In this document: piece after piece, positions 23,745 to 52,481 of the stretch | How the letters are laid out: each line of letters starts with the position of its first letter | Numbering within the stretch: position 1 is the stretch's first letter | NCBI GenBank assembly: GCA_963971405.1 | Contig: OZ020490.1 | Span: forward strand, 24,453,464 to 24,517,463 | DNA from: Psococerastis gibbosa | Lineage: Eukaryota; Arthropoda; Insecta; Psocodea; Psocidae | DNA: 64,000 nucleotides | Direction of reading: 5' to 3' | The notes under the pieces: model-generated | What the model saw: only the letters and a program-made list of their open reading frames with translations | Told to the model about the DNA's origin: nothing | The model's database searches: none | Translations under genes and position numbers: made by a program

Positions 23745-24021
23745 TTAATAATCATCGTCATCAACATTGAAATTAATTGTTTCCTTATATTTTGCAGTTG
23801 TTATTGTTGTTGTTGTTGATTCCATTACAGGTACTTTTGTAGTAAGTTCCTTCGGCAGAGAGCCACTGCAGACATCTATCTTCAATTTCGCAAATAAGTA
23901 ATTTTTCTTGACATCATCCGTATATTTTTTGGTGCAGTCCTTTATAGCTTCATTTGTATTCAAATTTTCTATAGATAGTAGCATTAGCATTACTCTACTC
24001 TGATAGAACAGATTTTCACGC
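23745..24021 (-). CDS. Paralogue A exon 5 (last C-x21-C pair, stop)
   Basis: Acceptor CTACTTTTCAG; ENLFYQSRVMLMLLSIENLN, KDCTKKYTDDVKKNYLFAKL, DVCSGS, a Thr-rich run and an acidic end; TAA at 23745-23747. Confidence 0.87.
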
Positions 24022-27000
24022 CTGAAAAGTAGAAAAGAAAACACATATTGTCATCTACATAGTTGTATTACCTACAGCTGTAAGAACAGCCAAATTTATA
24101 GACCTAGCGCTAGGTGAGTACTTACCTGCAAAATTTTCAGACATGAATTAGGCTAATTGCATTTGCCTTAACTTTAATGTTCGGCTTAACATTTTTTTTT
24201 AATTTTAATATACAGCAGATCTAGGTATTTTTCCATTTTTAGCGTCAGGTTAGTTCTTGATCAATTTATTTTTAATCTTCTTCTTTGAACGCCTCTTCTA
24301 TCGGAGATCATTGTGGCGATTTGAATGTTGGAGACTGCTGCTCTGCTCATGCTGCTCTGTTTATTAGTAAAAAACCGTCCGAGTGAACACGTACTTTCTT
24401 ATAATATAAAACTAATCAAAATGAAGTTATCCAAAAAATAAAAAATAGGCCTAAAGGTACATCCCTGGATGATATTTTTGCGATTTTTTTTTTTTTTTAA
24501 ATGATTAACCGCATGCATTCAATTTAATGAATGCATCCGATTAACCTCTTCAGTGGCCTCACTCTCCTCTATATGTTGAGTTACGACACGTCTCCAATCG
24601 CATAGCGTGTAGAGGCTCGCACAAGTGCAATCACGCAACACATGCCAAATTTCATAAAATTTTATAAAGTAGGTACTTTGGCCCTAATCGAGTTACAGAC
24701 GGACGGACCGACGACCGGTCACGACCGACACATATATGTGTGCCTATAGGCATTTCTTAGAAACCTCTTTTTTTGGGTTCCTAAAACGTATAAATCCGTT
24801 AAAGAAAAAATTCAATTACTCGTGACTTCGTGGTATTTCACTTTAATAAACAAACAAAACAGTTTTATCAAAATTGTTATATAACAACTATAACTAGAAT
24901 TAGTAAAACCCAAATAATCGTCAGAAAATTGACTTTGTCTACAAAACCCACTGATGTTAGCACAAAACCCTGAACGCTTTCGGCGTAAATTCCAAAATAT
25001 CTTGGGGGGGGGGAAGCATTAGGACCCCAAGACTTTCATCCCCCGGAGAAAAAAAATGATAAATAGGCCCAAATTAGTGAGGTGTTACGCATTTTATTCC
25101 CTGGAGAAAGGGGCGCCCGGGGGTCTCCCCCGGAGAAAAAAATGGACAAATGGGCCCAAATTAGTGAGGTTTTGCGCATTGATACCCTAGAGGAAGGGGG
25201 GTCCGGTGTTCTCCCCCGGAGCAAAAAAATGGACAACTATGCCCAAATTAGTGAGGTTTTACGCATATTAAACCCCGGAGAAAGGGGGGCCGGGGGTCTC
25301 CCCCGGAGAAGGGAAATTGATAAGTAGGCCCAAATTAGTGAGGTTTTGTAAACGCATTTGCAAGAGATTGTACCGACGAATAAACCTACCACTGAGGGGA
25401 GCCCGGGGGTCTGCCCGAAGAAAAAGTTTGAAAAAATAGGTCCGAAATATTGGGGTTTTAAGCATTTTGAGTACCGTAATATATTTTTGTGAAAGTAAGT
25501 CATTGTATGTGTTGATTTTTTCATGACGACTTTCACGTAAAATAAGCATACCAAACATTAATTTCCCTTTCGTTATTTTGGATACTATGCTTTTCGCCTC
25601 CATAACGTGTTTGTCACCAGAAATCCTGGAAGGGGGGCACGGGCTTAGCCCCCCCAGGACCCCCCTATATTTACGCCAAACGTATGTATGGGTTTGAGTT
25701 TCAACACAAATTTTCATTTCTCAAAACAACAAAATAAATATATATATAGAAGTTTTATTTGTAGTTAATCAAAAATTTTATCGGCCCTTCATTTTTTCAA
25801 AAACAAATTGACAATGGGCTAGGTAGGCCTATAAATCAACAATTTATTACAAATAATCATCGTCTGAAAATCTATACACTTTCAGCCGCTGAGTTTTGAT
25901 TTTGCTGAAATTTCTACAAAACTTTTCACCCTTTCCTTTTCGAAGCCCAATAGTGTTAAGTGTCCTTCACTTTAATCCCTCTTGGGGGGCGTGACAGAAC
26001 GTTTGGGGGGGGGGGCTGAGCCCCCCCCCGCCCCCCAGACTACGGCCCTGTTTCGTAGACAAAGTTAATTTTTTAATTATCATTTTGGTATTACTAATTC
26101 TAGTTATGATTGTTATAACAAGTTTTGGTAAAACACTATGTTTTTTTGTTTATTGAAAATTTGAATCAATTTCGACCATCACAAAGCTTTCCTTATACCA
26201 ACGTATACAAAGAAGAGCTATAAGTTACCTTTCAAATATACTATTGTATACAGTGTTCACACAATTGATGTCTTTATTATTCGGACGCTCCTGCGGTGGC
26301 GGCGGTGGGGGTGGAGGTGTTTGATGACGGTATCGATTATAGTTATAATTATAGTTAGGATCTGGTGTTGGCGCAATTGTCATGGCAGTGTTACAGGCAT
26401 CCAATGTCTCAATTGCATTGTTCAATTCGACTTTAATAGTGCTCTAAAACAGAAAATTGAGAAATAAGGAATACCTGCGGTCAATGCGGAACGCTGGAAG
26501 CCACGAACTTACGTTTCCGGGACATAGCACTACCACTATTATTGTTTGCCTTATCCTTGCTTGACTTGACTCTCCCATCGACAAGATTCATGTATTGTTC
26601 GACAGGCATCCTCGGGTGCACAACTATGTAGGTAACTCAACAGCTTTGACTTGACCCTCCCATCGACAAGATTTATATATTGTTCGACAGGCATCCTCGG
26701 GTGCACAACTATGTAGGTAACTCAACAGCTCTGACTTGACTCTCCCATCGACAAGATATAATGTATATATATATTATATATATATATATAGGTATATATT
26801 GTTCGACAGGCTACCTCAGGTACAGGAAAAACTGTGCACGGTGGGATTAGAACCCACAATCTACGCCTAACTGGGGAGTCGTCTCAACCGCTGGACCACA
26901 AGCCCCGACAAGAACAGTTGATATATATTATATCCTCTACTTATATGTTCTAATTGACATGATTCGTGTTTCTAGTCAGGTTAGCACAGCTGTTAAAAAA

Positions 27001-30000
27001 TTAATAAGCAAACAGAATAAGATAACGATGCAATGGATCCCTGCTCACTGCGGTGTCTCTGGAAATGAAATAGCTGATAGCATAGCAAAAGATGCGGCAA
27101 AAATGGCACCAATTCAAGAACCCCAGTTTTCATTAACACACTGTATGAATGCTGCTGACAGAGTCCTGCTTCAAGAACGGATACAGAGATGGAGGGTTTC
27201 CCCCCCTGTAAGCAACACAACCTAAGCCGGCTTCAGCAGTACAATATCGCGGGATAAACAGAAGCGTTGCATCCTTTGCTGCTAGAGCAAGAACAAGCCA
27301 CAATACTACCAATGATTGCTTGCACCGTTTCCATCTAACCGAATCTCCAGTATGTCGTGCATGTGGTCTAGCTAATGAAACACTGGAGCACATACTCCTG
27401 CAGTGCTCCGCCCCATGCACACAACGGGACAAACTACGCAATCAGGCTGGACACATGGAGGGCGGACATCTAAAGATCCTGTTCACGCCGAACATGTGGA
27501 CACTAGCATCAAGGGCATTTCTGAGACATCAGGCAGTCGGCATCACCTGACCTGGAAGCCCTGTACTAAGAAGTAAGAAGTAAGCACAGCTACACAAGTA
27601 CAAGTCTGTGAGCTTGCTTTATGCCATACGGCAATGCTTTATATACATTTATATGAATCATGCCAAGTAAAGCACTTAAGTAGAGGATATATATATCAAC
27701 TGTTCTTGTCGGGGCTTGTAGTCCAGCGGTTTAGACGATGGCCCGGTTAGGCGTCGATCATGGGTTCGAATAATTAACCTATAATATTAAAATATTAATA
27801 ATAACATTGATAGAATAACAGGATAACCCCTTAAATAAAATTCGGCTTTAGTGGAAAGTGCCTGAGGATGTACCATGAGATAAGATAAGAGGGATGGACT
27901 GGTGCTACGTGATTCGTTATAGCCTACCTTAATATCTGTTGCAGCTTTGATGAAGTTGGTAATTATTAGTTTCCTCACACTCATCACGCAAGTACTTGCT
28001 TTGGTCAAAATATTATTGAAAGCTTGTAGAACTTCAGATTCTGCTTGGAATAAACATTCTGATGTGGAATCATTCAAATTTCCGTTTGTTCGAAGGCCGG
28101 CAATGTACCCGGTAAGCTATAAGGAAACCGACATTATTATTATTCAGAACTCTTTTAACGCCTTAAACACTGGAAATTAACATTTCAAAAACCAACTCAT
28201 TTGCCTTCTATGCAATTACATATGGATTATGATAACGCAAATGAAAGTTAATATTTAGTTCACTACTGCATAATTCTCGATAAATATTTTTATGGTATAT
28301 TACGGTACATGTATTATGTATTGTATGATATTATGACGTTTTGTATTATAATCAAATGCAATTAAAATGATAACTTACATAACTTCCTAAACATTTCAAA
28401 TAACAACATAATCGGAGAACAAATTTATAAATAGACCTGATATATTAATCAGCTGTTTAAATGTTTCACTCCTTAGGCCTCCTAATAGTTCACTCCCTAG
28501 ATATTAGACTATTATGTACGGAAGTACCTTCTAAATGGTATAAGCTACACTCAGTTAAACCTGACGTCAACGCAGAAAATTGAATGCTTAAATAATTCAA
28601 ACAGCCAGCATTTTGCAAATGATATACTAGTAGATGGGTATGAGATAGAGCTTTCGTTTTGCTAAGGTTTCTTTTAGAAGTTCAACTCAAGAGCATTTTG
28701 ATATGGTTTCTCTGAATTCCAGATATGACTAAAATAAATAAATATATATTGAGTAGTAGTCTATGACACCACTCTACATGCCCTGACAAAATTGTTTCTT
28801 AAAAATTTATGGGAAAATATGACGCATGGTTCAACTTAACGTAGCTTACCTAATTTTTTTGAAGTGAAAACTTCTTTAGTGACGTTGAGCACTTTCGTAT
28901 TATTTAGATTTTAGATGAGGGATAAAAAGGGAAATTGTAATGACAGGAATTGCAGTGTAAGAAGACTGCGCATCTAGGGTGTGTTCGATGATAAACGAAA
29001 AGAAACCGCCTCGTGAGACCGCCTGATGAACGTATGAAGACCTAATATCACTATGGACACTATACACAAACTGCATAGATTTCTATTTAGAGCAAAATGA
29101 TTAACGTAAGAAGACCTGTTTTGACTATGCATACCGCCCGCCGTCTCGTTCTGTCGCGAGTAAATGTTTCTTGCCGTGATCATTAACGTAAGAAGACCCA
29201 TTTTGACTATGCATACCGCCCGCCGTCTCGTTCTAGCAATTCGAGCGAAATTAATTCCTAACCATTCCAAAATATTAAAAAATTTACAAGTCAATGTTCA
29301 TGTTTTCACTTCTGCCGGCCCTCCCGGAGTGCTCCCGGTTTTTTTTTTATTAAATCAGAAACTTACTTCTTCCGAATATTTGTTTATATCATTCATAAGC
29401 GAATTATTAGTCTCCTGGACATTTGTCTTTGTTGACGTAAACAAGGTGGACAGCCTAGGTATCTGTCTATCAATGTTCGTTCTGGTCTCATTGAAGTCTT
29501 GATATATTTGGTTTCGGACGTGAGCAAAAAGGTCCGAAAATTCAGCTGCTTCTATTGGCACTGCTACCTAAAATTCGTAAACAAAATTTCAATGACTTCC
29601 AACAAGATCGGCACTATTTTTTTAAAACCTGGCTCTCTTTACCGTATAGTAGACTAAATCACTAATGCTGCGCTACATTACGCATTTAAGGGGAACCAGT
29701 CCAAGTTTTTAGAAACAGCATGGCGTCAGAGGCTGAGAGCTAATTATCTAAATGTTCGTTCCACTATCTATTGACTATCTTGGACAACCGCACTTTGAAC
29801 ACCTCCTAAAATAAACTTGGATAATAAACAATACATTTTTTATGGGCACAGCGGCCTCATCATGGCAATTGGTATTAAGGCTGAGTGTTCAAAATGTTTT
29901 GTAAACAAGAAATTTTGCTGATTTTTTGACGAAAATAATTTATTAATCATTCCACAGATGCAAAGATAACAAAGTGAACAGATAAAAACTCATAAAAAAA

Positions 30001-30931
30001 CCAAGTTATCGCAGGAAGTTTATATTTTCTGAACTAAAATATTATTACCTTTAAAAAAATTGGGTAAAGAGCCTTAAACCCAATTTGTACCACAGTTGTA
30101 AATCTGTAAGGGTAATAGACAGCTTCCACAGAAAGCTCGTATTTTTTAAGATTTTTTCATCTGTTCCCTTTTATATCTTTGTGGCTGTGGAACGAGCAAT
30201 TAATTAATTTCGTCCAAAAAGTACGATAATTTCTTGTTTACAAAACATTTTGAACACTCAGGCTTAACTTACTCCTGGGATTAAAACCGTAAGCAAACAA
30301 ATTTTGAATAGCACTTTCCATTGTAAAATTATCTTAATTGTTTACATTTTTAATACCAGGGTATTATATTAACTCCGGTATTATAATCGCCATGATTGGG
30401 CCGCAGTTGTTAATAAAATGAATTAATATCATCTAAATGGAAGAAGACGTAGGTATTTAAGAAATAAGACTACCTATAGATTTTTATGGATTAACGTTAT
30501 CAAGACATAGGCTAATATATTGTTTATTTTCACAGCTCATGCATTTATAATTACTATGACGAAGTATTACAAAGTGAATGTGGAAGATATAACTGAAATA
30601 ACTTTATGAGGTGTTTAAAACCATTTGAATCAATATGAGGGACTAATTAATTAATTAATTAGCTCACAGCCTAGGTTGTATTTAACCTTTTTCGGGATTC
30701 CCCTTTGAAGTATGTATCAGATTCAATATTTGTATATTTTATTTTGTCTTGTAAAGATTGGAAGTACAATATTCATTCGTACATATTCATTCATTTGCTC
30801 TTCAAGTAAATACTTTGTTTTTGTCAATTCCATTGATTACACGTTCTTAAAACAAAAGAATATTGAAATTGTACAGTAATTAAACTTACAAAGAGCAGAG
30901 CTATAAACACAGCTCCTTCAATGGCAGTCAT
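23745..30931 (-). CDS. Paralogue A: secreted six-cysteine protein of unknown family, 5 exons, 307 aa
   Basis: I do not recognise this family. Exons on the minus strand are 30931-30890, 29567-29367, 28116-27928, 26443-26229 and 24021-23745, phases 0,0,0,2, all GT-AG. Residues 1-20 are a signal peptide (MTAIEGAVFIALLFVAVP), probably cut near IEAA-EF. No membrane anchor follows. Residues 22-160 look helical and Asn/Thr-rich. The six cysteines are 102, 124, 161, 205, 245 and 267, giving C-x21-C, C-x43-C, C-x21-C. Residues 174-194 form a Tyr/Asn stretch followed by eight prolines. The C-terminus is Thr-rich then Asp-rich (NVDDDDY). A polyadenylation signal lies 30 bp past the stop. B and C share the exon plan and cysteine frame. 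Domain of unknown function DUF725 is one family to test, without sequence proof here. Confidence 0.85.
24483..24830 (-). mobile_element. Family-2 SINE followed by degraded M1 fragment
   Basis: 24483-24640 is the SINE (GAGTTACGACACGTCTCCAA). About 24640-24830 has M1 landmarks such as TTCCTAAAACGTATAAATCC. In intron 4 of paralogue A. Confidence 0.55.
24842..26158. mobile_element. 1.3-kb foldback element with internal tandem repeats
   Basis: Arms of about 105 bp (AACTATAACTAGAATTAGTA, GACTTTGTCTAC and the inverse at 26055-26158) enclose a tandem array and G/C runs. No transposase frame is visible. Confidence 0.65.
25034..25400 (+). repeat. Tandem repeat, about 87-bp period, 4 units plus degenerate copy
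   Basis: GCCCAAATTAGTGAGGT recurs at 25067, 25153, 25241 and 25328, each followed by CCCCGGAG-type sequence. Open frames on both strands come from the repeat. Confidence 0.8.
26229..26443 (-). CDS. Paralogue A exon 4 (Tyr/Pro-rich insert)
   Basis: Acceptor CTGTTTTAG; DACNTAMTIAPTPDP, then NYNYNYNRYRHQT, eight prolines, and DINCVNTVYNSIFE. Donor GTAACT, phase 2. It differs from paralogue B exon 4 at only two bases, both silent. Confidence 0.87.
26562..26735 (+). repeat. Tandem duplication of about 88 bp in paralogue A intron 3
   Basis: CTCCCATCGACAAGATT...GGCATCCTCGGGTGCACAAC occurs twice in tandem. Only one related unit exists at the matching place in B (about 37020-37090). Confidence 0.75.
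26838..26908 (-). mobile_element. tRNA-like unit, left member of inverted pair 1
   Basis: The inverse of a cloverleaf-like sequence: GGGGCTTGTGGTCCAGCGG at one end and TGGGTTCTAATCCCACC at the other. Its partner is at about 27712-27775 on the plus strand. Confidence 0.6.
26992..27582 (+). mobile_element. 5'-truncated LINE insertion (RNase H plus C-terminal knuckle)
   Basis: Flanked by AGCACAGCT at 26983-26991 and 27583-27591, a 9-bp target duplication. The first frame encodes ITMQWIPAHCGVSGNEIADS, the RNase H motif of I/Jockey/R1-type elements. A second, frameshifted frame encodes VCRACGLANETLEHILLQCS. The tail is (AAGAAGT)n. It interrupted the sequence between the paired tRNA-like units. 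Confidence 0.8.
27712..27775 (+). mobile_element. tRNA-like unit, right member of inverted pair 1 (degenerate)
   Basis: GGGGCTTGTAGTCCAGCGG, GGTTAGGCGTCGATC and GGGTTCGAA are kept. The 3' acceptor half is lost. Confidence 0.55.
27928..28116 (-). CDS. Paralogue A exon 3 (first C-x21-C pair)
   Basis: Acceptor CCTTATAG, then LTGYIAGLRTNGNLN, SECLFQAESEVLQAFNNILT and KASTC; donor GTAGGC. 63 codons, phase 0 on both sides. Confidence 0.86.
28117..29366 (-). other. Paralogue A intron 2, mostly unassigned
   Basis: 29097-29240 holds two tandem copies (about 81-bp period) of a unit with TTAACGTAAGAAGACC and CGCCCGCCGTCTCG. The rest is AT-rich with no feature seen. Confidence 0.5.
29367..29567 (-). 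CDS. Paralogue A exon 2
   Basis: Acceptor TTTTAG, then VAVPIEAAEFSDLFAHVRNQ and LSTLFTSTKTNVQETNNSLM to KYSEE; donor GTAAGT. Contains the likely signal cleavage site and an amphipathic helical stretch. 67 codons, same length as in B. Confidence 0.87.
29879..30263. mobile_element. piggyBac-like MITE
   Basis: Ends GGCTGAGTGTTCAAAATGTT and its near-perfect inverse (about 37 bp), flanked by TTAA at 29875-29878 and 30264-30267. No transposase. In intron 1 of paralogue A. Confidence 0.75.
30272..30412. mobile_element. M2-related MITE (diverged)
   Basis: Contains CAAACAAATTTTGAATAGCA and CGGTATTATAATCGCCATGA. It lies 9 bp from the piggyBac-like element. Confidence 0.6.
30890..30931 (-). CDS. Paralogue A exon 1 (signal peptide start)
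   Basis: ATG at 30931-30929; MTAIEGAVFIALLF, then donor GTAAGT, phase 0. The exon and its donor flank are nearly identical to paralogue B at 41305-41264. Confidence 0.85.
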
Positions 30932-31900: not shown

Positions 31901-31929
31901 AAATATGCTCTATTGGCTGCTGTTATTCT

Positions 31930-33790: not shown

Positions 33791-33799
33791 ATGGCTTGA

Positions 33800-35282: not shown

Positions 35283-35499
35283 CTATTCAGTTATTGATTC
35301 CATTGCAGGCATTTCTGTGGTAAGTTCTTTCGGCGGAGAGCCGCTGCAGACGTCTATCTTCAATTTCGCAAATAAGTAATTTTTCTTGACATCATCCGTA
35401 TATTTTTTGGTGCAGCCCTTTAAAGCTTCATTTGTATTGAAATTTTCTATAGAAAGTAGGATTAGCATTACTCTACTCCGATGGAACAAATCTTCACGA
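35283..35499 (-). CDS. Paralogue B exon 5
   Basis: SREDLFHRSRVMLILLSIEN, then the last C-x21-C pair and PKELTTEMPAMESITE; TAG at 35283-35285. Confidence 0.86.
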
Positions 35500-38400
35500 C
35501 TGAAAAGTAGAAAAGAAAACACATTACGTATAGTTGTATTACCTACCTCCAGCCCGATCCTGCTGATTAATTGGGACTATTATAATACATGGGGTTTACT
35601 TTTAATAGTAAAGTGTCAGGTGACGATGTTAAGAAATGGGCGGGAAATTCAAATTAATAAATTATTAGAATACAAGAGAATGGGTGAATAATTGAAGGAA
35701 ATGCTAATAAACATTACAATGTAAAGGTAGAATTTTGAAAAATAATAAGAATTTTAATTAGTGTGTCTACATCTAGAGGGGAAAAAATTGAAAACTTACC
35801 CAAAATATTAATTTATCAATTTGAATTTCCCGCGCACTTTGTACTCATTTCTTTAAAACAATTGAATAAACCTCGGTACTATAATAATTCCAATTTGCCA
35901 TGATGCTGTTAGAATTAGAAATGCCGAATTTATAGACATAAATAGTGGGTACTTACCTGCAACCTAATTTAACAACTTTTAAATCTAACTTTAGGTAACA
36001 AGGCCTATATATTTTTCCATTTTCAGGGTCAGTCTGATTCGCTTGTAAGTTGATCAATTTTTTTTCTTCTTCTCTCAAGCTCTGAGACAAACGTCTGTTA
36101 TTGCATAGGCATGTCCAAAGGCAAGGCCGTTGCCAGGAATTTTTCCCGGGGGGGGGGGGGGTTTAGGGTTTAGAAATTTCATTGGGTATTACATAGTGGT
36201 TTTTATTTTTCCTCTCAAAATCCGATTCTATCTAGTATCAAGCTATTTCATTTGGGGGGGGGGGGGGTTTGGACCCCCATGACCCCCCCCCCCCTTGGCT
36301 ACGGCCTTGTCCAAAGGCGAGGCGTGCCCCGTGTACTGACTGAGAAGAGTTGACACGATTGTGGTCCCGGACGCTGGAGAAGAGGAAAACCAAAGATGAC
36401 GCTGCCGAGAAATATCCACTATCCAGGCAGACATGGACCAACTCTCACTCACAAGCCGGGACGCCCTAAATAGAGGGCTGTGGAGGCGCCTTACCATTCC
36501 GTCATTCCGCCATTCAACCATTCCCCCGTAGCGTACAGGGCCACAAGGGACGGAAAAAGCAAAAAAAAGTTTCTTGAATGTCTCTTCTATACAGTACCGT
36601 TGAAGTCTCAAAATTGAAAATTTCATTCATTTTCGACTGTCACAAAGCTTTCCTTATACGAACGTATACAAAGAAGAGCAATAAGTTACCTTTCAAATAT
36701 ACTATTGTATACAGTGTTCACACAATTGATGTCTTTATTATTCGGACGCTCCTGCGGTGGCGGCGGTGGGGGTGGAGGTGTTTGATGACGGTATCGATTA
36801 TAGTTATAATTATAGTTAGGGTCTGGTGTTGGCGCAATTGTCATGGCTGTGTTACAGGCATCCAATGTCTCAATTGCATTGTTCAATTCGACTTTAATAG
36901 TGCTCTAAAACAGAAAATTGAGAAATGAGGAATACCTGGTCAATGCGGAACGCTGGAAGCCACGAACTTACGTTTCCGGGACATAGCACTACCACTATTA
37001 TTGTTTGCCTTATCTAGGTTTGACTGGACTCTCCCATTGACAAGATTCATGTATTGTTTGACAGGTTACCTCGGGTACACAACTATGTAACTCAACAGGT
37101 CTGCGAGCTACATAGTTAATTTAAATTAAAAATAAAAATAAATTAAATAATTTTAGGCTTTGTTCAAGGATGGATCCAGATGAGCCGCCCCCCCCCCCCT
37201 CCCAAGACGAACGAATTCACACTAGAATAAACAAGGATTCACAAATATACCTACTTAATACAGTAAGAAGTAAGAGTACAAATTACAACTGCCAAATGGA
37301 CTATATGGGATCCCGTCCAGGTTCCCAGATCCCAACCTTTCCTAACCTTTCCCAACACTAACATTAATTGTCTAGAACTCTAGACCGTTGCTTTGAGCCC
37401 CGCATTGTCCACATATTTATTGATTCCCTTGAATTAAATATGAAAAACGGTAAAATTTCAAGAGACGGAAGAATGAAATTATAATATTACAATATTAATA
37501 ACAACGACTGACGTACACTCTTCAAAGAAGTTTAGCTGTATAGCGGATAGAGCCTAAAGCGGTGCCCCCACTATGCCGCGTTGCCTGTTGGCAAATTACA
37601 ATGGCGGCTATTCCACCGACGTCGTTTTTCATTGTGCATGTGCATGACGTGGTAGCAGACATCATTAATAAGTCTCTGCCATATTTTAAGGAGACTATTA
37701 TGTAGATACTTAACTTATCTATTGTAAATTAAGTTATAGAATGGTAGGGACTTATTTAATGATGTCTCCTACCACGTCATGCACATCCACAATGAAAAAC
37801 GACGTCGGTGGAATAGCCACCAACGCGGCAAATCTCATTGTTGGCCTCCCGTCCATACCGAAAGTTAACATCCAGCCGCAAAATGTCCGCCGAGGTGGAT
37901 TTACTAGGAGGATTAACCTACGTGTCGCGTGAAGCCAACGGTTGGCATGTCCCCACTACCCGCTCTCGCTGGCTTCCTTTGATGGAGACCGACACTTAAG
38001 CGACGTTCTGCGGCAAACCGTTGGCTCAGTGGCACGCCGCTTAAGGATATCCCATCAGATAAGATAAGAGGGATGGACGGTTGTTATGATTCGTTAATAA
38101 CCTACCTTAATATCTGTTGCAGCTTCGATGAATTTGGTAATTATAGGTGTTCTCACACTCGACACGCAAGTACTTGCTTTGGTCAGAATATTATTAAAAG
38201 CTTTTAGAACTTCCGATTCGGCTTGAAATAAACATTCTGATGTCGGATTATTCAAATTTCCGTTTGTTCGTAGGCCAGCAATGTACGAGGTAAGCTATAA
38301 GGAAACCGACAGAAGTAATTAAGTTTAATCATCAGAAACGCCGTAAGCACTAGAAATTTAGGGTTATTTTTCAAATGCAAAGTCCTTTGCCTTTTTGTGC

Positions 38401-41305
38401 AATTATGGATTATGATACCTTAAATGAAAGCTAACTTTTAGTTCGCTACTTCATGATCAACAATAAATATTTTAATATATATATAAATATATATAAATTT
38501 ATGAATAGGCCTGATAAATGAATCAGCTGTTCGAATGTTTCACCCCTTATAGGCCTCCTTATAGTTAACTCCCTAGATGTTGTTGTTTCTAGCGCCTGCT
38601 TTAAGCATTTCTGCTTTTAAACAACCCTGTCAGTCTGGTCCCAGTCTGGGAGTGAGTCTGTTTGTTAACTTGAGGCACCCTAAGGGCAGACTCTATCACC
38701 TCGGGGAAAGGGGAGTTGACTGACAGGGTAAACCTCCTGATTATAGTGGATTCCGAACCACTTCGGGATCACGGTTAAGTCACACGATTAAATCGGAGGT
38801 GACCAAGACTCGACAGCTGCTGGTATAGTCTCAGCTCGTTATCCTGTCCCTCCATGTTCCCCTGCCAACACTGTGCACACCAAGTTTGCCGCAGTTTGAA
38901 ACTTGTTCTGCTCTAATGGATTCAACATGGTAAGGCCGTTGGCTCCCTAGATCAGCCATATTAGGCTATTGTACTATATATAGTATATAAGTACCCTCTA
39001 TGGTAAGCTACACTCAGTTGAACCTGACGTCACAGCAGAAAATTGAATGCTTTCATAATTAAAGCGTTGTCACACTTACTTTGTGTGTTACGCGAACAGC
39101 CAGCATCTTGCAAATTATATAGAGCTTTCGTATTGCTAGGGTTTTTCAGACGTTAAGTTCTAGAGCATTTTGATATGGCTTTTCAAAATTACAAAAATCT
39201 CGATAATTACTTCCTAAAGATTTTTGAAACTATGACGTATGGTTCAACTTAATGTAGCTTACGGTACCTACTTTTTTCTTTTATCAGAAACTTACTTCTT
39301 CCGAATATTTGTTTATATCATTCATAAGCGAATTATTAGTCTCCTGGACATTTGTCTTTGTTGACGTAAACAAGGTGGATAGCCTAGGTATCTGTCTATC
39401 AATGCTCGTTCTTGTCTCATTGAAATCTTGATATATTTGATTTCGGACGTGAGCAAAAAGGTCGGACAACTCTGCTGCTTCTAGTGGCACTGCTACCTAA
39501 AATACGATATTCATAAAAAGAAATGGTTAGGCAGAGTTAAACATTGGAGAGATGGGTCAATTGCCATGTCCAATCTCTCCTGGCTATTATTCTATAATGG
39601 ATAATATACAAAATTACAGTCAGAGCGCAATGGCACAACATACGAAAAACCACTGCATAAGACCACAAGACACGGGCAATCTACGGTATTATTCTCGATT
39701 CGCCACTGGAACCGCCTACCGTTGGAGATTAGGGCAGCTAGTTCTCTCAGTAGCTTTAAGAAAATTATTAAACAATGTATGTTAGAATGTTAGATAACGC
39801 TAGAGACTCTCCCCGGTCTTATAATGGTGACGACAATGGATCCCCCCCCGTATATATTTTAATCTTCTTCACCCCCCTCTCTTCTTCTCTTGTTTCTTCT
39901 CTATTTATTTTTAAGCATCTATCTATAATTATAAATAATATATAATACCGTATAATAAATCTGTAATTAATACAATATTTTTGTTTTTAAGGTTAGCATG
40001 AAAAGGAGACTTTATATAGTCTTATTGTTCGCCTTTTGTTTTTTCAATAAAGTCGTTTTCAATTCAATTCAATTCAATGGATACGGTACTGTCACACACT
40101 AAAAACAAATATTACTATTTAATGTCAGTCAAGATCTGCACAATTTATTTATAACACACCTTCACTCTTTAGCGTTTAACAGACAGAATCACTAATGCAT
40201 CTTGCGGTACATTACATAACCAACACCATTGAAAAAGAATCTTTTCAAATTTGTGGTAACAACGCGGCATGACAGCTAATTAGGAAATTAAATAACAGGT
40301 AGAATTTTGAAATAAAATAAGAATTTCAATTAATGTGTCTAAATACACGTATAGTATAAGGGAGAAACAATTGAAAACTCACCAAAGAAAAGCCCATGAT
40401 AAATTTATCAATTTAAATTTCCAGCGCACTCGTTTTTTTTAAAACAATTGAAAAAACCTCGGTCGTATTATGTTAATCCCAAATCGCCATAATGGGACTG
40501 TTGCAGCTCGATCATGGCGATTTAGAATTATTACAATACCGGGGTTTATTCAATTGATTTAAACAAATGAGTTCAGAATGCACCGGAAATTAATAACTTA
40601 ATATTTATGGTGAGTTTTTTTTATTTTTCTCTCTTAATTAAAATTCTTATTATATAGCCTATTTAAAAATTCTACACATATATTTTTATTTTTATTATTA
40701 TTTCCTTCAATGATTAAACAATCCAACCATTCTCTTGAATTCTAATAATTTATTAATCTGATTTTCCCGCGCATTCCATATATACATACCGTCCAGTGAA
40801 AACTTTTTTTATTATTTAAGGCTAAATCATGTAAAAACAATTTAATGAATGTATCCGATTAACCTCTCCAATCCCCTCACTAAGTCACCTAATAGGTACT
40901 TGTGTCGAGTTACGACGCGTCTCCGACCGCAAGGTGTGTTGATACTCGAACAAGCACAAGCACGCTACCACCTCGCCACCGAAGTCGCTAAACTTACTAC
41001 TGCGGTATTAAAAAATGAACCCCGTTATTATAATAAGCCCAAATCGCTATGATTGTATACCTTTGCTGTACTGTACTATTGTTATGAGAAAAGAGCAAAT
41101 TGTACATGTTTATAATTCGTACTCTATAGAAAGAATTTTCTACTCTACGATCAAATACTTTTTTGTCAATTCAATTGATTAAACGTTTCTCTACATCAAA
41201 ATTTTATTGAAACTAGTCTATAGATTATGTATATACTGTGTATTGTACAATAATTAAACTTACAAAGAGCAGAGCGATAAACACAGCCCCATTAATGGAA
41301 GTCAT
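35283..41305 (-). CDS. Paralogue B: secreted six-cysteine protein of unknown family, 5 exons, 287 aa
   Basis: Exons are 41305-41264, 39496-39296, 38294-38106, 36904-36690 and 35499-35283, with the same lengths and phases as A for exons 1-4. Signal peptide MTSINGAVFIALLFVAVPLE. The cysteines fall at the same six positions (102, 124, 161, 205, 245, 267). The C-terminus is 20 residues shorter than A and lacks the Thr/Asp-rich tail. Identity with A is uneven: about 3 changes in 67 codons in exon 2, about 10 in 63 in exon 3, none in exon 4, many in exon 5. Expression and localisation are likely to match A, given the shared 5' blocks. Function unknown. Confidence 0.85.
35500..36689 (-). other. Paralogue B intron 4
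   Basis: Contains a hAT-type MITE (36122-36309), LINE-like traces at about 36315-36550 (minus frame with QYTGHASPLDK-like residues in broken frames) and an M1 scar at 36625-36672 shared with A. AT-rich elsewhere. Confidence 0.5.
36122..36309. mobile_element. hAT-type MITE with perfect 8-bp duplication
   Basis: Ends CAAGGCCGT/ACGGCCTTG; TCCAAAGG occurs at both 36114-36121 and 36310-36317. G and C runs lie inside the ends. Confidence 0.85.
36690..36904 (-). CDS. Paralogue B exon 4, protein identical to A
   Basis: Same 71 full codons as 26443-26229. Donor GTAACT, phase 2. The near-identity extends into both flanking introns. Confidence 0.87.
37603..37821. mobile_element. PIF-like palindromic MITE
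   Basis: GGCGGCTATTCCACCGACGT and its inverse; the core shares GACTATTATGTAGATACTTA with 1579-1841. In paralogue B intron 3. Confidence 0.7.
38106..38294 (-). CDS. Paralogue B exon 3
   Basis: LTSYIAGLRTNGNLNNPTSE and CLFQAESEVLKAFNNILTKA with the C-x21-C pair. Acceptor CCTTATAG, donor GTAGGT. Confidence 0.86.
38585..38945 (-). repeat. Interspersed repeat R6
   Basis: Inverse of the 2637-2998 copy over nearly its full length; in paralogue B intron 2. Confidence 0.65.
39296..39496 (-). CDS. Paralogue B exon 2
   Basis: VAVPLEAAELSDLFAHVRNQ followed by the same Thr/Asn-rich helix as A; donor GTAAGT. Confidence 0.87.
39690..40078 (+). mobile_element. LINE 3' end with (CAATT)n tail
   Basis: The plus frame reads IRHWNRLPLEIRAASSLSSF followed by KKIIKQCML and a stop, the C-terminus of a non-LTR RT. 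It is followed by about 290 bp of 3' UTR with AATAAA and a (CAATT)n end. In intron 1 of paralogue B. Confidence 0.7.
40430..40990. mobile_element. M2-like arms and family-2 SINE
   Basis: 40440-40560 has rearranged M2 sequence (CGATCATGGCGATTTAGAAT). 40806-40990 is a minus-strand family-2 SINE (GAGTTACGACGCGTCTCCGA). Confidence 0.55.
41264..41305 (-). CDS. Paralogue B exon 1
   Basis: ATG at 41305-41303; MTSINGAVFIALLF; donor GTAAGT, phase 0. Confidence 0.84.
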
Positions 41306-45447: not shown

Positions 45448-45545
45448 AATAGCACTTCAACAACTACAACCAATTTACTAATATATTGTATTGTATTTGG
45501 GGAAACTTCAACAAGGAATAGGATATTACTAAATAAGACGAAATT

Positions 45546-45745
45546 GAACTATTCAATGACCATTGGTTGAATTTTGTTGGGAAATAGAACAATTTGGCTG
45601 TTCGCTGCAATATTTTTGCCAATTACATAGTTATTAATAATATTATAAGACGTATTGAACTACTCAATGACCCACATTGGTTGAATTTTGTTGGGAAGTA
45701 AAACAGTTCGCTGAAATATTTTTGCCAATGACATAGTTGCTGTGG
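45546..45745. repeat. Tandem duplication covering the 3' end of paralogue C
   Basis: About 112-bp period: TTGGTTGAATTTTGTTGGGAA and AATATTTTTGCCAAT occur in both halves. The right copy is the end of exon 5 with its stop; the left copy lies in the 3' UTR and is diverged. Confidence 0.75.
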
Positions 45746-45862
45746 ACCTGCTCGAATGAACTGGAGACGCAGCCCATTGCAACGCCTTTGACAATGTACC
45801 TACTGTTCAAATTGTTTCCCTCAATAACTTCGTCCTCAAGCTCTGCGTTCAGGGATTCGTAC
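45664..45862 (-). CDS. Paralogue C exon 5
   Basis: Acceptor TGTTTTTAG; YESLNAELEDEVIEGNNLNS, MGCVSSSFEQVHSNYVIGKN, ISANCFTSQQNSTNVGH; TGA at 45664-45666. Confidence 0.82.
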
Positions 45863-48800
45863 CTAAAAACACAAATAATCCGTAATATGATAGAACTTAG
45901 TAATAAGAAAAACAATTAATCTGTGTGGGAAATTTCATCAGTGCCGTGTTGTATAGGTTTCATGTACTGCATACTCAAGATTAAAACCGATTCGATAATA
46001 CAATTAGTCAACAGGAGGGCTCAAATTTGGCGGGAAATCTGCATATGTAAGATAAAATCAGAGTGACACTGTCATTTCCATCCAGCGCTCACTTCTTCTG
46101 GGTCTTCAACACTTTGGTGGGCTTTGATCTCGTCAACAATACTCCTCGAGACATCTCGGTTTTGCACGACACTCGGTTTCTAATTTTAAATGTTACCTGA
46201 TAATGGATTGGACGACTGTGGGTACCAGACACTTATGGTCTCCGTTAGCGCATTTTCGTAGTAAGTTTTGGAACTCTCGCAGAGAAGCCAGCACCTTATT
46301 CTAAAACAAAGTCAATGTGAATATCATTTGACTATTCAAGTTTCCGTCATCAGCATCTCAGTTTCAATCAAAATTGTATGCATACACAGTCTAGAATCTA
46401 ACCGAAATTAGAGGATATGGAAAAAACTGGGCTTGGCGGGATTCGAACCCACAATCTACGCCTAACCGGGGCGTCGTCTTAACCGCTGTCACAAGCCCGG
46501 CAAGTCCAGTAAAATGCCAAATCCCCTACTTATGCTCTAATTGACATGATTCGTGTTGCTAGACAGGTTAGCACAACTACACAACTATCTAACCGAACAG
46601 GTCTGTGAGCTTACTTAATTGCATAAAGGCAATGCTTTATTCATTACATTGTAGTATTATATGGTATATATAACACTGACATTAAATTAACTTTGGTTGA
46701 AGAGGTAACCTCCTCGTTATAACCGAAATTTACTGGACTTGTCGGGGCTTGTGGTCCAGCGGTTAAGACGACGCCCCGGTTAGGCGTAGATCGTGGGTTC
46801 GAATCCCGCCAAGCCCAGTTTTTTCCATATCCTCTAATTTCAGTTATAACGAGGAGGTTACCTCTTCAACCAAAGTTAATTTAATGTCAGTGTTATACAG
46901 TATATACCATATAGTACTACAATGTAATAAAGCCTATAATCTAATTGAAAAGGCATTCACAGCCGGTTCTGATGATGAAACAGTAAAATCCTGTCAACCT
47001 GGTCCTTTAATCAGAAGTGAGTGGACTTGACAGGGAGCCAATCAGAAACTAGAATGACTTAATTGCTGCCTTCCCCTCCTCTCAAACCCGTAACCAGGGC
47101 TGCAGAAATATTTTATCTTTAGACCCGGTAGAATTGAACTTTCCAGAGGTGCGACATATCACAACATACTATACTACCGACTTATGCCATCTTGGACGTC
47201 TATAGTGCCACTGAAAATGTCGACCGCAGATGTTAACGAAACGTTAGGAAGTTCGCTTTCAGACTATGACCCATCAGTCCTGATTCAACTCAATATATTG
47301 CAGCACTATATGGTAGGCTATATACCTGTAATACCCCAGATAGTCATAGGTCGTAGGTTGGGATCCCACTAAGTTCAGTTTTTTCGAAATCCCCTAATTT
47401 CTGATTCAACTCCATCATCACCTACAGCCTAATTCTGAAATACTGTAAGTCCTGCTATTTGGCACTTCTGTGGCAAAGTGGTAGCGTGCTTGAACTTGTG
47501 CGAGTCTCTACACACCGTGCGGTCGGAGACGTATCGTAACTCGACACAAGTACCTATAAGGTTACTTAGTGAGGCGATTGAAGAGGTTAATCGGATACAT
47601 TCATTAAATTTTGTACCTTTTTTTAGAAAATATAAAAATATATGTTTAGGCAATTTACAGTTTACACAGGAATATGAAACATAAATTCTCAACTCATGTT
47701 CTATAGCTACGAATTTCATAAATCTCTACCTTGAAAAGGTCCAACTTCTTATTTAGGCTCTCATATTGTTTTTCATAGCTCAGCTGCGCCGATCGAATGC
47801 AGTTCTGCACATTGTACCATGTGTTTCTATAGGCTTGAATTAGGGAAAGCTCCCCACGTATTATGCAGTCATTAATGGAAGGAGCCCCGTTATTGGCCAT
47901 CCTTAAAGACAGATTCTCTGCGCTCGTCTGAAAATTACATGGCAAATAAGCAAATAGTTTTCGTGCAGTCAACCTAATTGATTCATACTAATACATAAAT
48001 AATAATGAGCTACAGTGAGTATCCTATACTGGGGCGTAAAGTTGGGGGGGGGGGCACGGTCCATCTTGCCCCCCCCCCCCCAGCCTCGAGCATTGTAAGA
48101 CGTGGTTCATGGAGTCCACCGGGCCCCTTTGCAGCAATATGAAAACAAGGCTTTGTCAGCTTTGTAAAATCTACAGCTATACGTTACTACTGTTAAAATG
48201 CGTAAAACCCTACTATTTTGTACTTATATTTTCAATTTCTTATCCTGCCTGATGACGTCATAAGGTCTACTTAGTTTTGCCCCTGCCATCATTCTAAAAC
48301 TTTACGCTTCTGCAGCCTGATCGGGGCGTTTATAATACCGGTATTTATTTAATCCACTGGTAAACAAGATAATTTTATAATGGAAAGTGCTATTCAAAAT
48401 TTGTTTGTTTACAGTTATAATCCCAGGGTATTTATTTGACCCCGGTATTATAAACGCCTCGATCAGACTGCTGATCCTATAAGCAAACCTCTAACGGTAG
48501 GTACTTCTATACAGGGACGCAACAACAGGGGGGGGGGGTACATTGCCCCCCTCCTGGATACCAATTGCCCCCCCTGGAAATCATTGCCATCCCACCACCC
48601 CCCCCCCCCCCCAAGAAAAAGCCTAAATTTTGAAATAGCATTAAAAAGGTGTGCGTCAATTGGACATAGACAAAGTGTTAGCGGAATTCATTAGTGCCAA
48701 TGAGTACCGACACACGGTTTTCGGCAATATCTATAGGTAAGGGTTAGTGTGATATAACTTCTTAATACAGCCTGTTTAAACATTCTACAGTATAGTATAA

Positions 48801-51800
48801 TTTGTGGTTTCTTGCCCCCCCCCCTCCTGGAAAGAGTCCGTTGTGGCGTCCCTGCTTCTATATCAGGGGTTCTCAAATGGCGACCCTCTTCCAGGCTGGG
48901 GGCCATGGGCGAGCCATGTGAAAAAATATGTTATTCCTTTTATGAAAATAATAACAAAATTCGAGGGAATTTTTTTTACTAAACAAACGTTGTTGATAGT
49001 TTGTTTTTTCTTCATTACATAAAACACCTTTTTATATAAATACATGCATTCAATGCCCCCCCCCCCCCCCCCCGCCCCACATACGAGAATATGGTATATA
49101 TTTTAGGGAGCCACCGAAAAATTGTCTTGAGAACCCCTGCTCTATATAATAGCCTACACGAAATTTCCCCCCACCTATCGGGAACCCCCACCTATCGGAA
49201 ACCCCCACCTATCGGAAACCCCCACCTAAACGGCGCAAATGCAAATATCCGCTAGGATCCCGCGTCTTAAAAATAAAAAAACCGAGAGGAAGGGAACACA
49301 AAAAAATTGTCGGAGTGGGATCAGAACCATCAAAAGCGACCTATTGGGTTTTGTTTATATCAAATATCAAGAACAACTAAAATAAATGTGAATTAAAAAA
49401 AAAAAAAAAAAAAAAAAAACCGTTGGAGTCGTTTTGTATTAATTGGAAGTCAAATATACTTTTTATATTAAATAAATAATTTCCTCGCCAATAAATTGTT
49501 ACATATATAAGAATAGTCAAACTACATCAACAAAATGTCAGTATCAAGCAGCGGCCTCAAATCCAAAGTGATGTACATTAGAGAAGTGAGGCTTATATTG
49601 ATTTTGGAGTTTCAAGGGTGTAAAACCCCTAAAAATTGATGTAACCCATAATCCATCTTTCATCGAGGAGTGAGTGTGCCCACAAATTTATGTCGTACCG
49701 ACCAACAGCAGTGCCGGGTTTGACCTTGTGGGGGCCCCTGAACTGGTCCGAACTGTGTTGGAGCCCTTACTCCTTACCTTTACTCGAATATCCCACTATC
49801 ATTTATAAAATAGAGACTCAGGATGCAAAATAGAATAGAATACAATCGATTAAGGCGATTAATCTTTAATGCCACGGCACGTTCCAATTTCCCGCCAAAT
49901 ATTTCGACAAGCTTCTTATTTGCTTTCGTTTGTTGTTTTTTTAATCTAGGCCTATTGCGATTTTGTGGCTTGTTGTGGGGGCTTCTTTTTTGTGGGGCCT
50001 CGTTTTTTGTGGGGGCCCTGGATCCATGGCACAAAAAAAAAAACTTTTATACCTGGGACCTGAAAACAAGACATAATTTATTGTTTCCTCGTAAATTGTA
50101 TTACCAGATTGCTATGTTGCTCAATGTATTCTACGACTTGATGGGCTTGTTCTTGTGAGAATAACGTGTACATTCTTAACATGTTATACATGTTCTTGAG
50201 CTGCACTTCTCCAGCACCTTTGTGCAGTTTATTGAAATCGGTATTGACTTTCCCTAGAGCTTGTTGAGGGGTCATGAAATCGTTGGCATTGTATTGGACA
50301 CTTAGCGCAGTTCCCACAATCTGCAATATCAAATCAAATACAAATATATAATATTATATTTTTTGTTTATGGAAACATACCTAGCCAACGCCCACCCTTA
50401 TCAGGTTACCCAATGTTATTATATTTAGTGGGTTAGCCATTTGGTGAAGCGCTGACCCAGTATCTCCTTGCTGTCTCTCGGAAGATGCTGTCCGTTTGGG
50501 TGATAAAAAATACACAAGAAACATTACAATTTACAATTAACATAGTCAAAAGCAAAATTACCAGCACCGGAACCACTTCCAAAAGCAAATATCGAACTAA
50601 AGAGGGTACCTACCTAATTGTAAGTACTTAAGTAAACGGTTAAATGCATACAGCATCCAAGTTAATGAAGAATTAGGAGGAACGGTGATAGGCCTACGTA
50701 CAGTAAACAGAATAACCTTACCAGCGGGCCTACTATGGGGATTATTATTCATCTTAACCTGAGATTACAAATGTAAACAAATCAATTTTGAATAGCACTC
50801 TCCAGTGTTAAATTAGGTACCTTGTTTACATATATTAATCCCAGGTTAAAATTAAAAATAATCACCATAGTAAGCCCGCTGTAGTTAAGCTATTAAAACT
50901 CCAGTGGGCCTACTATGGCGATCACTTTTAATCTTATCCTGGGATTATAATTAATGTAAACAAGGCACCTAATTTAACTAAGGAAAGTACTAATCAAAAT
51001 GGTTTTATTAACATTTTTAACCCCCGGAATAAGTTAATAGTAGGTTAAAAGATAAAAAAAAAATAAGGAAGCGGAAATTTTCTTTATTTAAGAGGATGTC
51101 GATTTTAGGAAATTGGCACACAATTAGTCACCAAAATCTGTTGTTATTATGTTGATTTTGATTTTTTATTACATTTATTAAGTAACTTATTACAGATGTA
51201 GTCTATTCAAGTTGTAGAAGTCGTACATCATACTTGTATTTTAAGGTATTTTTAATTTTAGGTAGGGTACGGGAGTTCTTTCAAGAAAGTTACTTGGGAC
51301 TAAACTAAAATTCCCCCAGTAATGTTCATGGAACAACTACAAGGCAAACAATTAAAAATACTCTATAACAAGGGTTCTCAAATGGTAAGCCATGGGTGAG
51401 CCATGCGAAAAAATAAGTTATTGCTTTTATGAAATATATAAGTTGAAAATAATGGCAAGCCTCGAGTTTCAATCAAGTGAATTTTTGACTAAATATAAAT
51501 ACATGCATTCAACACCACCATTTTTCTCGAGAACCCCTGCTCTATAATATGATGCATGAGTAGACCAAATTTTTAATAACTTGCCTTGTAAATTAAATAA
51601 CAAATAATAAGCGTCGGGTTTTGCGATGGGGTGCCAATTTTCTACGCTCCTCCTAATGACGTTTTAATCCCTTAAATACCTACGCCTACTAGACGCCTAC
51701 TCATACGTTTCCAAAACCTCAAAGACGCAGCACAAATGAGAGAGCACTGCCACAACACTCGGCAAAGAGACGCACTCCTACTACCAAAACTCAGCTTGGC

Positions 51801-52481
51801 AAAATGTAGCTACACATACCTGGCACCAAAAATATTTAAGCTGATCCCCGTAGACATAAAAAGTTGTACAAGGAAAACTTCTTTTATACACCTACTAAAC
51901 TTATGGCTTCACGAGAAAAAAACAGATTTAGAAAACTTACTATTCCATGTAGAACAATAAAAATATATTTTCATCAACATTTTTTTACTCAACTTAAAGA
52001 ACAAAACTTATTTTTCTATTAACTCTTTTCTAGCATATACACTTTTACATACGTAACACATACCTGCACACTGTCGTAACAAATCGGAGTTAAACTGAAA
52101 TGCTGTACCGGCCCTAGCACGTGGAAACACAGTTGGGCTGGTTATAGTTCCTTGTAAAGTATTGAATGCAATATAACTTAAGTATTTTAGCGTATTTAAA
52201 GTTAATATTAATTTTGTCATTTTATGTATACTTCTCTTGTTGGAAAAAAATTGAATAAATATATATTTGATTTGATTTGATTTGAATTACATTATAGTAA
52301 TCCAAGGAGCGTCCGCACTAAAACCCAGCTCAGAAAATCATATAGGCTAGTTACCAGTAAAATATTGAATTCGTTTTTTCATCGTCTAAATTAGGTAAAT
52401 AACATCTGCTGAAATAATGCAAAGAAATAACTCACCAGCAAAAAAGTTAATGTGATATTCACATCTGTTATAAAAGCCATT
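45664..52481 (-). CDS. Paralogue C: diverged secreted six-cysteine protein, 5 exons, about 253 aa
   Basis: Exons are 52481-52436, 50320-50105, 47927-47730, 46300-46197 and 45862-45664. Gene structure and phases (0,0,2 at the last three introns) match A and B, although the sequence is strongly diverged. Cysteines at about 108, 130, 170, 177, 219 and 241 again give C-x21-C, a middle pair, and C-x21-C; the middle pair is 6 residues apart because the Tyr/Pro insert is absent. Exon 1 encodes a hydrophobic start (MAFITDVNITLTF). As written, exon 1 ends in phase 1 while exon 2 needs phase 0; a run of seven T in exon 1 is one base too long for the expected frame. This is either a sequence error, another first exon, or a real frameshift. 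Function unknown. Confidence 0.78.
46197..46300 (-). CDS. Paralogue C exon 4 (short, no Pro insert)
   Basis: NKVLASLREFQNLLRKCANG, DHKCLVPTVVQSII; phase 2 donor AG|GTAACA. 104 bp compared with 215 bp in A and B. Confidence 0.8.
46402..46512 (-). mobile_element. tRNA-like unit, left member of inverted pair 2
   Basis: Inverse of the 46745-46817 unit with a 4-base deletion in the D-arm region (GCTGTCACAAGCCC). It is bounded by GGATATGGAAAAAACTGGGC, whose inverse bounds the partner. Confidence 0.7.
46634..46935. repeat. Palindrome surrounding the intact tRNA-like unit
   Basis: Left arm 46634-46725 and right arm 46840-46935 share TTAAATTAACTTTGGTTGAA, GAGGTAACCTCCTCGTTATA and inverses. The tRNA-like sequence is the loop. 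Confidence 0.75.
46745..46817 (+). mobile_element. Complete tRNA-like cloverleaf in a foldback element
   Basis: The acceptor stem GGGCTTG/CAAGCCC pairs fully; anticodon stem ACGCC/GGCGT has loop CCGGTTA; T-arm GTGGG-TTCGAAT-CCCGC. The anticodon would be GGT, but position 33 is C and 37 is T, unlike working tRNAs. Four related copies in inverted pairs show it is part of a mobile unit; a real tRNA gene is less likely. Confidence 0.65.
47469..47632 (+). mobile_element. tRNA-like SINE, family 2
   Basis: TGGCAAAGTGGTAGCGTGCT head, GTGCGGTCGGAGACG and GGTTAATCGGATACATTCAT body. In intron 3 of paralogue C. Confidence 0.7.
47730..47927 (-). CDS. Paralogue C exon 3 (C-x21-C)
   Basis: TSAENLSLRMANNGAPSIND then C108, YRNTWYNVQNC130 and LSYEKQYESLNKKLDLFK. 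Acceptor TTTTCAG, donor GTAGAG. Confidence 0.82.
48029..48472. mobile_element. Two adjoining MITEs: G/C-run element and M2
   Basis: 48029-48312 has ends GGGGCGTAAAGTT/AACTTTACGC with G and C runs inside. 48313-48472 is a clean M2 copy (CAGCCTGATCGGGGCGTTTA / inverse). Confidence 0.65.
48512..48854. mobile_element. hAT-type MITE with perfect 8-bp duplication
   Basis: Ends CAGGGACGCAACAAC/GTTGTGGCGTCCCTG; CTTCTATA at 48504-48511 and 48855-48862. Very long C runs inside. Confidence 0.82.
48864..49140. mobile_element. hAT MITE (CAGGGGTTCTCAA ends)
   Basis: TIRs CAGGGGTTCTCAA/TTGAGAACCCCTG are classic hAT. Flanks TTCTATAT (48856-48863) and CTCTATAT (49141-49148). It abuts the previous MITE; a relative is at 51369-51540. 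Confidence 0.82.
49141..50104. other. Paralogue C intron 2, mostly unassigned
   Basis: ACCCCCACCTATCGGAA repeats three times at about 49165-49225; a long A run lies at about 49397-49420. No gene seen. Confidence 0.45.
50105..50320 (-). CDS. Paralogue C exon 2
   Basis: Acceptor GATATTGCAG; IVGTALSVQYNANDFMTPQQ, helical KNMYNMLRMYTLFSQEQAHQ, VVEYIEQHSNL; donor GTAATA, phase 0. Confidence 0.8.
50724..51045. mobile_element. Two M2b MITEs
   Basis: 50724-50880 has ends AGCGGGCCTACTATGG and CCATAGTAAGCCCGCT. A second, truncated copy begins near 50902 (AGTGGGCCTACTATGGCGAT). Confidence 0.7.
51369..51540. mobile_element. hAT MITE, diverged
   Basis: AAGGGTTCTCAAATGG and CTCGAGAACCCCTG ends. Internal GTGAGCCATGCGAAAAAATA matches 48864-49140. 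Confidence 0.65.
51670..52285 (+). mobile_element. LINE 3' end with (TTGAT)n tail
   Basis: The plus frame reads IRFQNLKDAAQMREHCHNTR, LLLPKLSLAKCSYTYLAPKI and FKLIPVDIKSC to a stop at 51958, the C-terminus of a non-LTR RT. About 320 bp of 3' UTR ends in GATTTGATTTGATTTG. In intron 1 of paralogue C. Confidence 0.75.
52436..52481 (-). CDS. Paralogue C exon 1 (phase conflict)
   Basis: ATG at 52481-52479; donor GTGAGT after 52436. The 46 bp give phase 1, but exons 1 of A and B are phase 0. The T7 run is at about 52440-52446. Confidence 0.6.

What the first reader, a model, noticed from the sequence alone, without database searches (positions are those of the whole stretch)
23745..52481. Three-gene tandem family of secreted proteins with a C-x21-C / C-xn-C / C-x21-C frame
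Paralogues A, B and C have the same five-exon plan, intron phases 0,0,0,2 (C's first intron is disputed), a hydrophobic N-terminus and six cysteines. The outer pairs are exactly 22 positions apart in all three (A 102/124 and 245/267; C 108/130 and 219/241), although C shares little other sequence. I cannot place the family; it may be an undescribed secreted (gut, salivary or reproductive) protein group.
Basis: partly seen in the sequence, partly recalled or inferred. Interest (0 to 1): 0.78.

Follow-up and report, generated by a model that had tools for sequence, protein, structure and literature searches.

The report
Three secreted-type genes, DUF725-like cysteines
Three neighbouring genes, probably from an insect, encode secreted-type helical proteins with six regularly spaced cysteines, in a frame close to that of a known insect gut-protein family (DUF725/TsetseEP), perhaps stapling two long helices together.

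Summary
Genes A, B and C (minus strand, 23745-52480) each have five exons, intron phases 0,0,0,2 and six cysteines, with 22-residue steps in both outer pairs. A/B show purifying selection (dN/dS 0.30). C is a true relative: exon 3 of A and C match far above shuffles. Each cysteine pair lies within one exon.

The gaps are 22-37-44-40-22 (A, B) and 22-40-7-42-22 (C), nearly a palindrome. The Pfam DUF725 profile, read with recalled probe sequences, has cysteines 22-36-12-40 apart. Membership is not shown.

AlphaFold2 (three sequences) makes exon 3 one helix through both cysteines, against a hairpin disulfide within that pair; exon 5 was inconclusive. I favour a three-rung ladder, C1-C6, C2-C5, C3-C4. 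Two such rungs occur in the solved mosquito protein albicin (PMC7948415 passages). Secretion, tissue and function could not be tested.

The parts
30890..30931 (-). gene A exon 1: start codon and hydrophobic N-terminus
   Evidence: the region around it aligns with that of B exon 1 at 77% DNA identity
29367..29567 (-). gene A exon 2 (phase 0 introns both sides)
   Evidence: 94% DNA identity to B over 232 bp
27928..28116 (-). gene A exon 3: Cys1 (102) and Cys2 (124), C-x21-C
   Evidence: significant match to C exon 3; one helix through both cysteines in AF2
26229..26443 (-). gene A exon 4: Cys3 (161), proline-rich loop, Cys4 (205); ends in phase 2
   Evidence: 0 nonsynonymous differences from B
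23745..24021 (-). gene A exon 5: Cys5 (245), Cys6 (267), Thr-rich then acidic tail, stop
41264..41305 (-). gene B exon 1
39296..39496 (-). gene B exon 2
38106..38294 (-). gene B exon 3: Cys1, Cys2
36690..36904 (-). gene B exon 4: Cys3, proline-rich loop, Cys4
35283..35499 (-). gene B exon 5: Cys5, Cys6, tail shorter than A's
52436..52480 (-). gene C exon 1 (least certain exon)
50105..50320 (-). gene C exon 2
   Evidence: no significant similarity to A/B exon 2
47730..47927 (-). gene C exon 3: Cys1 (108), Cys2 (130)
46197..46300 (-). gene C exon 4: Cys3 (170) and Cys4 (177), six-residue loop
   Evidence: no significant similarity to A/B exon 4
45664..45862 (-). gene C exon 5: Cys5 (219), Cys6 (241), stop
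45533..45632 (-). partial tandem copy of the tail of C exon 5 (83% DNA identity over 103 columns)

Best explanation
A, B and C are three functional genes for secreted helical proteins with the cysteine frame of the DUF725/TsetseEP family, from which they are either very diverged members or a look-alike. Inferred structure: two long antiparallel helices stapled by three disulfides, C1-C6, C2-C5 and C3-C4. The two C-x21-C steps are then two rungs of one ladder, which is why they have the same length. The C3-C4 loop at the tip is free to vary (43 residues, proline-rich in A and B; 6 residues in C), as is the C-terminal tail. Inferred action: a protease-resistant rod released into an extracellular space, most likely the gut lumen or saliva, that binds through its variable tip and tail. 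Shown: gene models as clean open frames with splice signals, selection on A/B, A-C homology in exon 3, the frame match. Predicted: the exon-3 helix. Inferred: secretion, disulfide pairing, site of action, binding role.
For: Models and phases; dN/dS 0.30; A-C exon 3 z 7.2 and exon 5 z 3.1. Gaps A 22,37,44,40,22; C 22,40,7,42,22. Random placement of six cysteines gives g1=g5 with |g2-g4|<=3 in 0.07% (A's span) and 0.14% (C's span) of 100,000 draws. DUF725 profile cysteines are 22,36,12,40 apart: changing each of these five costs 6-7 bits, a sixth costs 3.5, and +/-1 residue between C1 and C2 costs 6-8 (against 137.1 bits). A's agreement with that frame arose in 1 of 200,000 random draws, C's looser one in 21 of 200,000. 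AF2 of exon 3: one helix, residues 16-62; block pLDDT 86-94 for residues 21-60, which hold both cysteines. Albicin crystal structure: Cys58-113 and Cys81-91 join two helices, steps 23 and 22 (PMC7948415, passages).
Against: No DUF725 match by hmmscan or genome search. Residues of A/C placed in the DUF725 register score about as shuffles: first pair A 103.4 vs 99.1-103.7 (4 shuffles), C 105.1 vs 102.2-103.2 (3); C4-C5 A 84.8 vs 78.9-87.4 (8). AF2 of exon 5 gives short helices with breaks between C5 and C6, so one helix is not shown there. Both folds used three sequences and lone exons. In exon 3 the cysteines sit 72-117 degrees off the hydrophobic face, and exon 5 shows no helical amphipathicity. 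DUF725's sixth cysteine is recalled and lies outside the profile; the probes were recalled consensus sequences, not database proteins. No signal-peptide program, no transcripts, no whole-protein fold.
Confidence: 0.5

Rival explanations
1. Orphan lineage-specific secreted family: the same ladder architecture arose independently, and it is not related to DUF725.
For: No profile match; chimera residues about as good as shuffles; twin C-x22/21-C ladders are known in SG7 proteins, whose authors suggest independent origin of their helix bundle.
Against: Three gaps agree within 0-1 residue for A (22, 37 vs 36, 40), rare by chance.
Confidence: 0.35
2. Each C-x21-C pair closes its own helical hairpin: C1-C2 and C5-C6 disulfides.
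For: Exon 5 of A is predicted as several short helices; each pair sits in one exon.
Against: Exon 3 is predicted as one confident helix through both cysteines, about 33 angstroms apart by helix geometry; equal steps in both pairs and near-equal inner gaps are unexplained.
Confidence: 0.12
3. C is not related to A and B; its matching frame is chance or a selected gene model.
For: Exons 1, 2 and 4 of A and C are no more alike than shuffles, and exon 5 is not significant by global alignment; C-x21-C occurs 39 times in six frames of the window.
Against: Exon 3 z 7.2 with 0 of 1000 shuffles, exon 5 local z 3.1; pairs of different exons reach at most z 2.3; same five-exon phase pattern.
Confidence: 0.03

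Closest known systems
DUF725 / TsetseEP (PF05267; that the two names mean one domain is recalled)
   Same: Cysteine steps 22, 36/37, 40. A DUF725 protein and TsetseEP are reported in mosquito and tsetse peritrophic matrix (PMC5865745 and PMC3998921, passages); TsetseEP has 8 cysteines, all before its Glu-Pro repeat tail (PMC2832768, passage).
   Different: No profile hit and no clear residue-level agreement between cysteines; long proline-rich loop in A/B; six cysteines.
SG7 / 30 kDa (aegyptin, AAPP) C-terminal domain, PF25001
   Same: C-x22-C and, after a short loop, C-x21-C on two antiparallel helices, with C1-C4 and C2-C3 rungs (albicin). Best Pfam row of A: E 0.0043, 17.5 bits; my recalled DUF725 probe also hit it weakly (E 0.0036).
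   Different: Below the curated cut-off of 27 bits; four, not six, cysteines; 30 kDa proteins carry an acidic Gly/Glu/Asp-rich N-terminal half (PMC5307786, passages), unlike A, B and C.
CHCH twin C-x9-C proteins (recalled)
   Same: Two helices stapled by two rungs of equal step.
   Different: Step 22 instead of 10, hydrophobic N-terminus, longer helices. No CHCH row in the Pfam scan at E<=10.

Membership tests
DUF725 / TsetseEP (PF05267) | Match to the Pfam profile at or above 22 bits | tested here: not met
   No DUF725 row for A, B, C, nor for trimmed core regions, at E<=10; none in the genome at E<=10, one candidate scored, no positive control
DUF725 / TsetseEP (PF05267) | Conserved cysteines 22, 36, 12, 40 apart | tested here: met
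   A 22,37,44,40; C 22,40,7,42: met for the helix steps (exact or within 1 in A, within 4 in C); the tip gap (12) differs in both
DUF725 / TsetseEP (PF05267) | Sixth cysteine 22 after the fifth | not testable with these tools
   Present in A, B, C; in DUF725 only recalled, beyond the 121-position profile
DUF725 / TsetseEP (PF05267) | Residue agreement between the cysteines | tested here: inconclusive
   A within the range of shuffles in both segments tried (4 and 8 shuffles); C first pair 1.9 bits above the best of 3 shuffles; C's other segments and B not tried
DUF725 / TsetseEP (PF05267) | Secreted into the gut | not testable with these tools
   Hydrophobic N-terminus only; no expression data
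SG7 / 30 kDa C-terminal domain (PF25001) | Match to the Pfam profile at or above 27 bits | tested here: not met
   A 17.5 bits, E 0.0043; B 12.1 bits, E 0.21; C none at E<=10
SG7 / 30 kDa C-terminal domain (PF25001) | Four cysteines as twin C-x21/22-C with cross-helix disulfides | tested here: inconclusive
   Twin C-x21-C present but with a C3-C4 pair and longer spacers between; pairing not measured

The most novel reading that the evidence does not exclude
The C-x21-C step marks a widespread stapled-helix design in insect gut and salivary proteins: two hendecads of helix between rungs. DUF725/TsetseEP, the SG7/30 kDa proteins and this family would be one superfamily, hidden because only the cysteine ladder is kept while other residues turn over.
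Probability: 0.25. Interest if true: 0.65.

Novelty: new variant of a known kind. Interest (0 to 1): 0.42.

Why it matters
If right, cysteine spacing would be a better handle than sequence profiles for finding fast-evolving secreted proteins at insect epithelia, a class that includes pathogen-facing gut proteins and blood-feeding factors. The equal-step rule gives a testable disulfide map for DUF725, for which one PDB search with a recalled consensus found no solved relative.

Tried and rejected
PDB sequence searches gave only chance-level rows: A/B/C profile, best E 0.55; first 162 residues of A, best E 0.31; DUF725 probe, best E 1.4. Viral and prokaryote contig scans with A matched 2 and 34 stretches by pattern, none confirmed as a relative, as expected for such a gene. 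Single-sequence searches of the 409 Mb genome returned 8 and 4 places, all exons 2-5 of A, B and C themselves. Exon 3 and exon 5 profiles over 100 kb on each side of the window found no fourth gene; the best other rows were E 0.12 (exon 3) and 0.011 (exon 5, the partial tail copy beside C). Distant copies elsewhere are not excluded. The other weak Pfam rows differ between the three proteins (best for B: Baculo_PEP_C, E 0.047; for C: PFam54_60, E 0.0078; all below cut-off), as is usual for helical sequences, so A's Aegyptin_C row may mean no more.

The hydrophobic-moment test supported an amphipathic helix for exon 3 (shuffle fraction 0.004 A, 0.002 B, 0.041 C; though C's best angle was 142, not 100) but not for exon 5 (about 0.48). 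Three spellings of C-x21-C/C-x22-C were searched in the paper library: 63 papers, 15 listed, and judging by titles and abstract starts none of those 15 is on such an insect family. Searches on DUF725/TsetseEP gave no structural paper on the domain among the rows listed. Host: genome searches for COX1 and rRNA and the mitochondrial contig did not name it; that it is an insect, perhaps a hemipteran, is my reading from recall. NCBIfam, PADLOC and PHROGs were not searched.
Full report
Gene models. On the minus strand the window holds three genes with five exons each. Twelve of 12 introns have GT/AG ends and the phases are 0,0,0,2 in all three genes. A encodes 307 residues, B 287, C 253. Each has exactly six cysteines. 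Exon 3 carries cysteines 1-2, exon 4 cysteines 3-4, exon 5 cysteines 5-6. N-termini are hydrophobic; no signal-peptide program was available. C's first exon is the best by hydrophobicity of six candidates but remains the weakest part of the models. The host is taken to be an insect from the look of its mitochondrial proteins (recall).

Are they real genes? A and B differ by 28.5 synonymous changes over 188.8 sites and 32.5 nonsynonymous over 672.2 in the common coding sequence (dN/dS 0.30; Fisher p 1.2e-5 on rounded counts), so the reading frames are under constraint. Exon 4 is unusually similar (dS 0.045 against 0.18-0.27 elsewhere; Fisher p 0.03), and the DNA identity extends beyond the exon (95% over 479 bp), which suggests recent gene conversion. 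C is much diverged. Exon by exon against shuffles, exon 3 is clearly homologous to A (local z 7.2; 0 of 1000) and exon 5 probably (local z 3.1; 18 of 1000, but 75 of 1000 by global alignment); exons 1, 2 and 4 are not above chance. No other copy was found in the genome by single-sequence search, nor within 100 kb on either side by exon profiles.

The cysteine frame. Gaps are 22-37-44-40-22 in A and B and 22-40-7-42-22 in C. The frame is nearly a palindrome: equal outer steps, inner steps that differ by 3 (A) and 2 (C). Under random placement of six cysteines over the same span, symmetry this close (equal outer steps, inner steps within 3) has a frequency of 0.0007 (A) and 0.0014 (C) in 100,000 draws each. 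The tip gap is the one that varies most.

What equal steps mean. Twenty-two residues are two hendecads, about six helical turns, so both cysteines of a pair face within 40 degrees of each other on one helix. AlphaFold2 on exon 3 of A, with B and C as alignment, gives one helix from residue 16 to 62; block pLDDT is 86-94 for residues 21-60, which hold both cysteines. In such a helix they are about 33 angstroms apart and cannot bond to each other. Equal steps on two antiparallel helices are what a ladder needs: C2-C5 and C1-C6, with C3-C4 near the tip. The exon 5 prediction (mean pLDDT 82.8) is a set of helices with breaks between its cysteines, so the second helix is not shown; the exon was folded without its partner. 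A precedent exists: in albicin, Cys58-Cys113 and Cys81-Cys91 join helices 3 and 4, with steps of 23 and 22, and AAPP is said to show the same disulfide pattern (PMC7948415, passages read). The best Pfam row of A is that family's domain, Aegyptin_C, at E 0.0043, below cut-off; this may be helical composition only.

DUF725. No DUF725 row appears for A, B or C, for their trimmed core regions, or for the genome at E<=10 (one candidate scored, no positive control). To learn the profile's own cysteine frame I used two consensus sequences recalled from memory; they match DUF725 at 1.8e-33 and 3.7e-40, the second over positions 4-121 with equal lengths on both sides. Replacing single cysteines lowers the score from 137.1 to 130-131 bits for five of the six inside the profile and to 133.6 for the other. 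So the profile holds cysteines 22, 36, 12 and 40 apart; a further one, 22 on, is recalled only. A agrees with 22, 37 and 40. Random placement reached A's agreement in 1 of 200,000 draws and C's looser one in 21 of 200,000. But when A or C residues were put into the DUF725 register, scores were within the range of shuffled residues, apart from C's first pair, which exceeded the best of its 3 shuffles by 1.9 bits. The frame agrees; the residues do not clearly do so. I therefore call it DUF725-like and do not file it as a member.

Function. A DUF725 protein is listed in mosquito peritrophic matrix and TsetseEP in that of tsetse (PMC5865745, PMC3998921, passages), and TsetseEP protects the tsetse midgut from trypanosomes (PMC2832768, title and passages). 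That DUF725 and the TsetseEP domain are the same Pfam entry is recalled. By analogy the window's proteins are most likely lumenal proteins of gut or saliva, stapled against proteases, with a variable tip loop and tail for contact. That is inference.

Noticed in passing
11664-19829, + strand: Exons of an Xaa-Pro aminopeptidase-like gene (Creatinase_N_2 E 3.8e-25, Peptidase_M24_C E 5.5e-20) next to gene A.
   Followed up: partly
49439-49601: A 163 bp nuclear copy of mitochondrial DNA from the cox3 region (92% identity to the assembly's own mitochondrial contig) inside intron 2 of gene C; an older piece (70%) from the cox1 region at 9182-9476.
   Followed up: yes
26152-26630 and 36613-37089: 95% DNA identity between A and B around exon 4, beyond the exon, while other exons are more diverged at synonymous sites: likely gene conversion.
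   Followed up: partly
26851-27225, + strand: RNase H domain fragment, probably of a retroelement, in intron 3 of gene A on the opposite strand (Pfam E 1.8e-07).
   Followed up: no
45533-45632: Partial tandem copy of the 3' end of C exon 5.
   Followed up: partly
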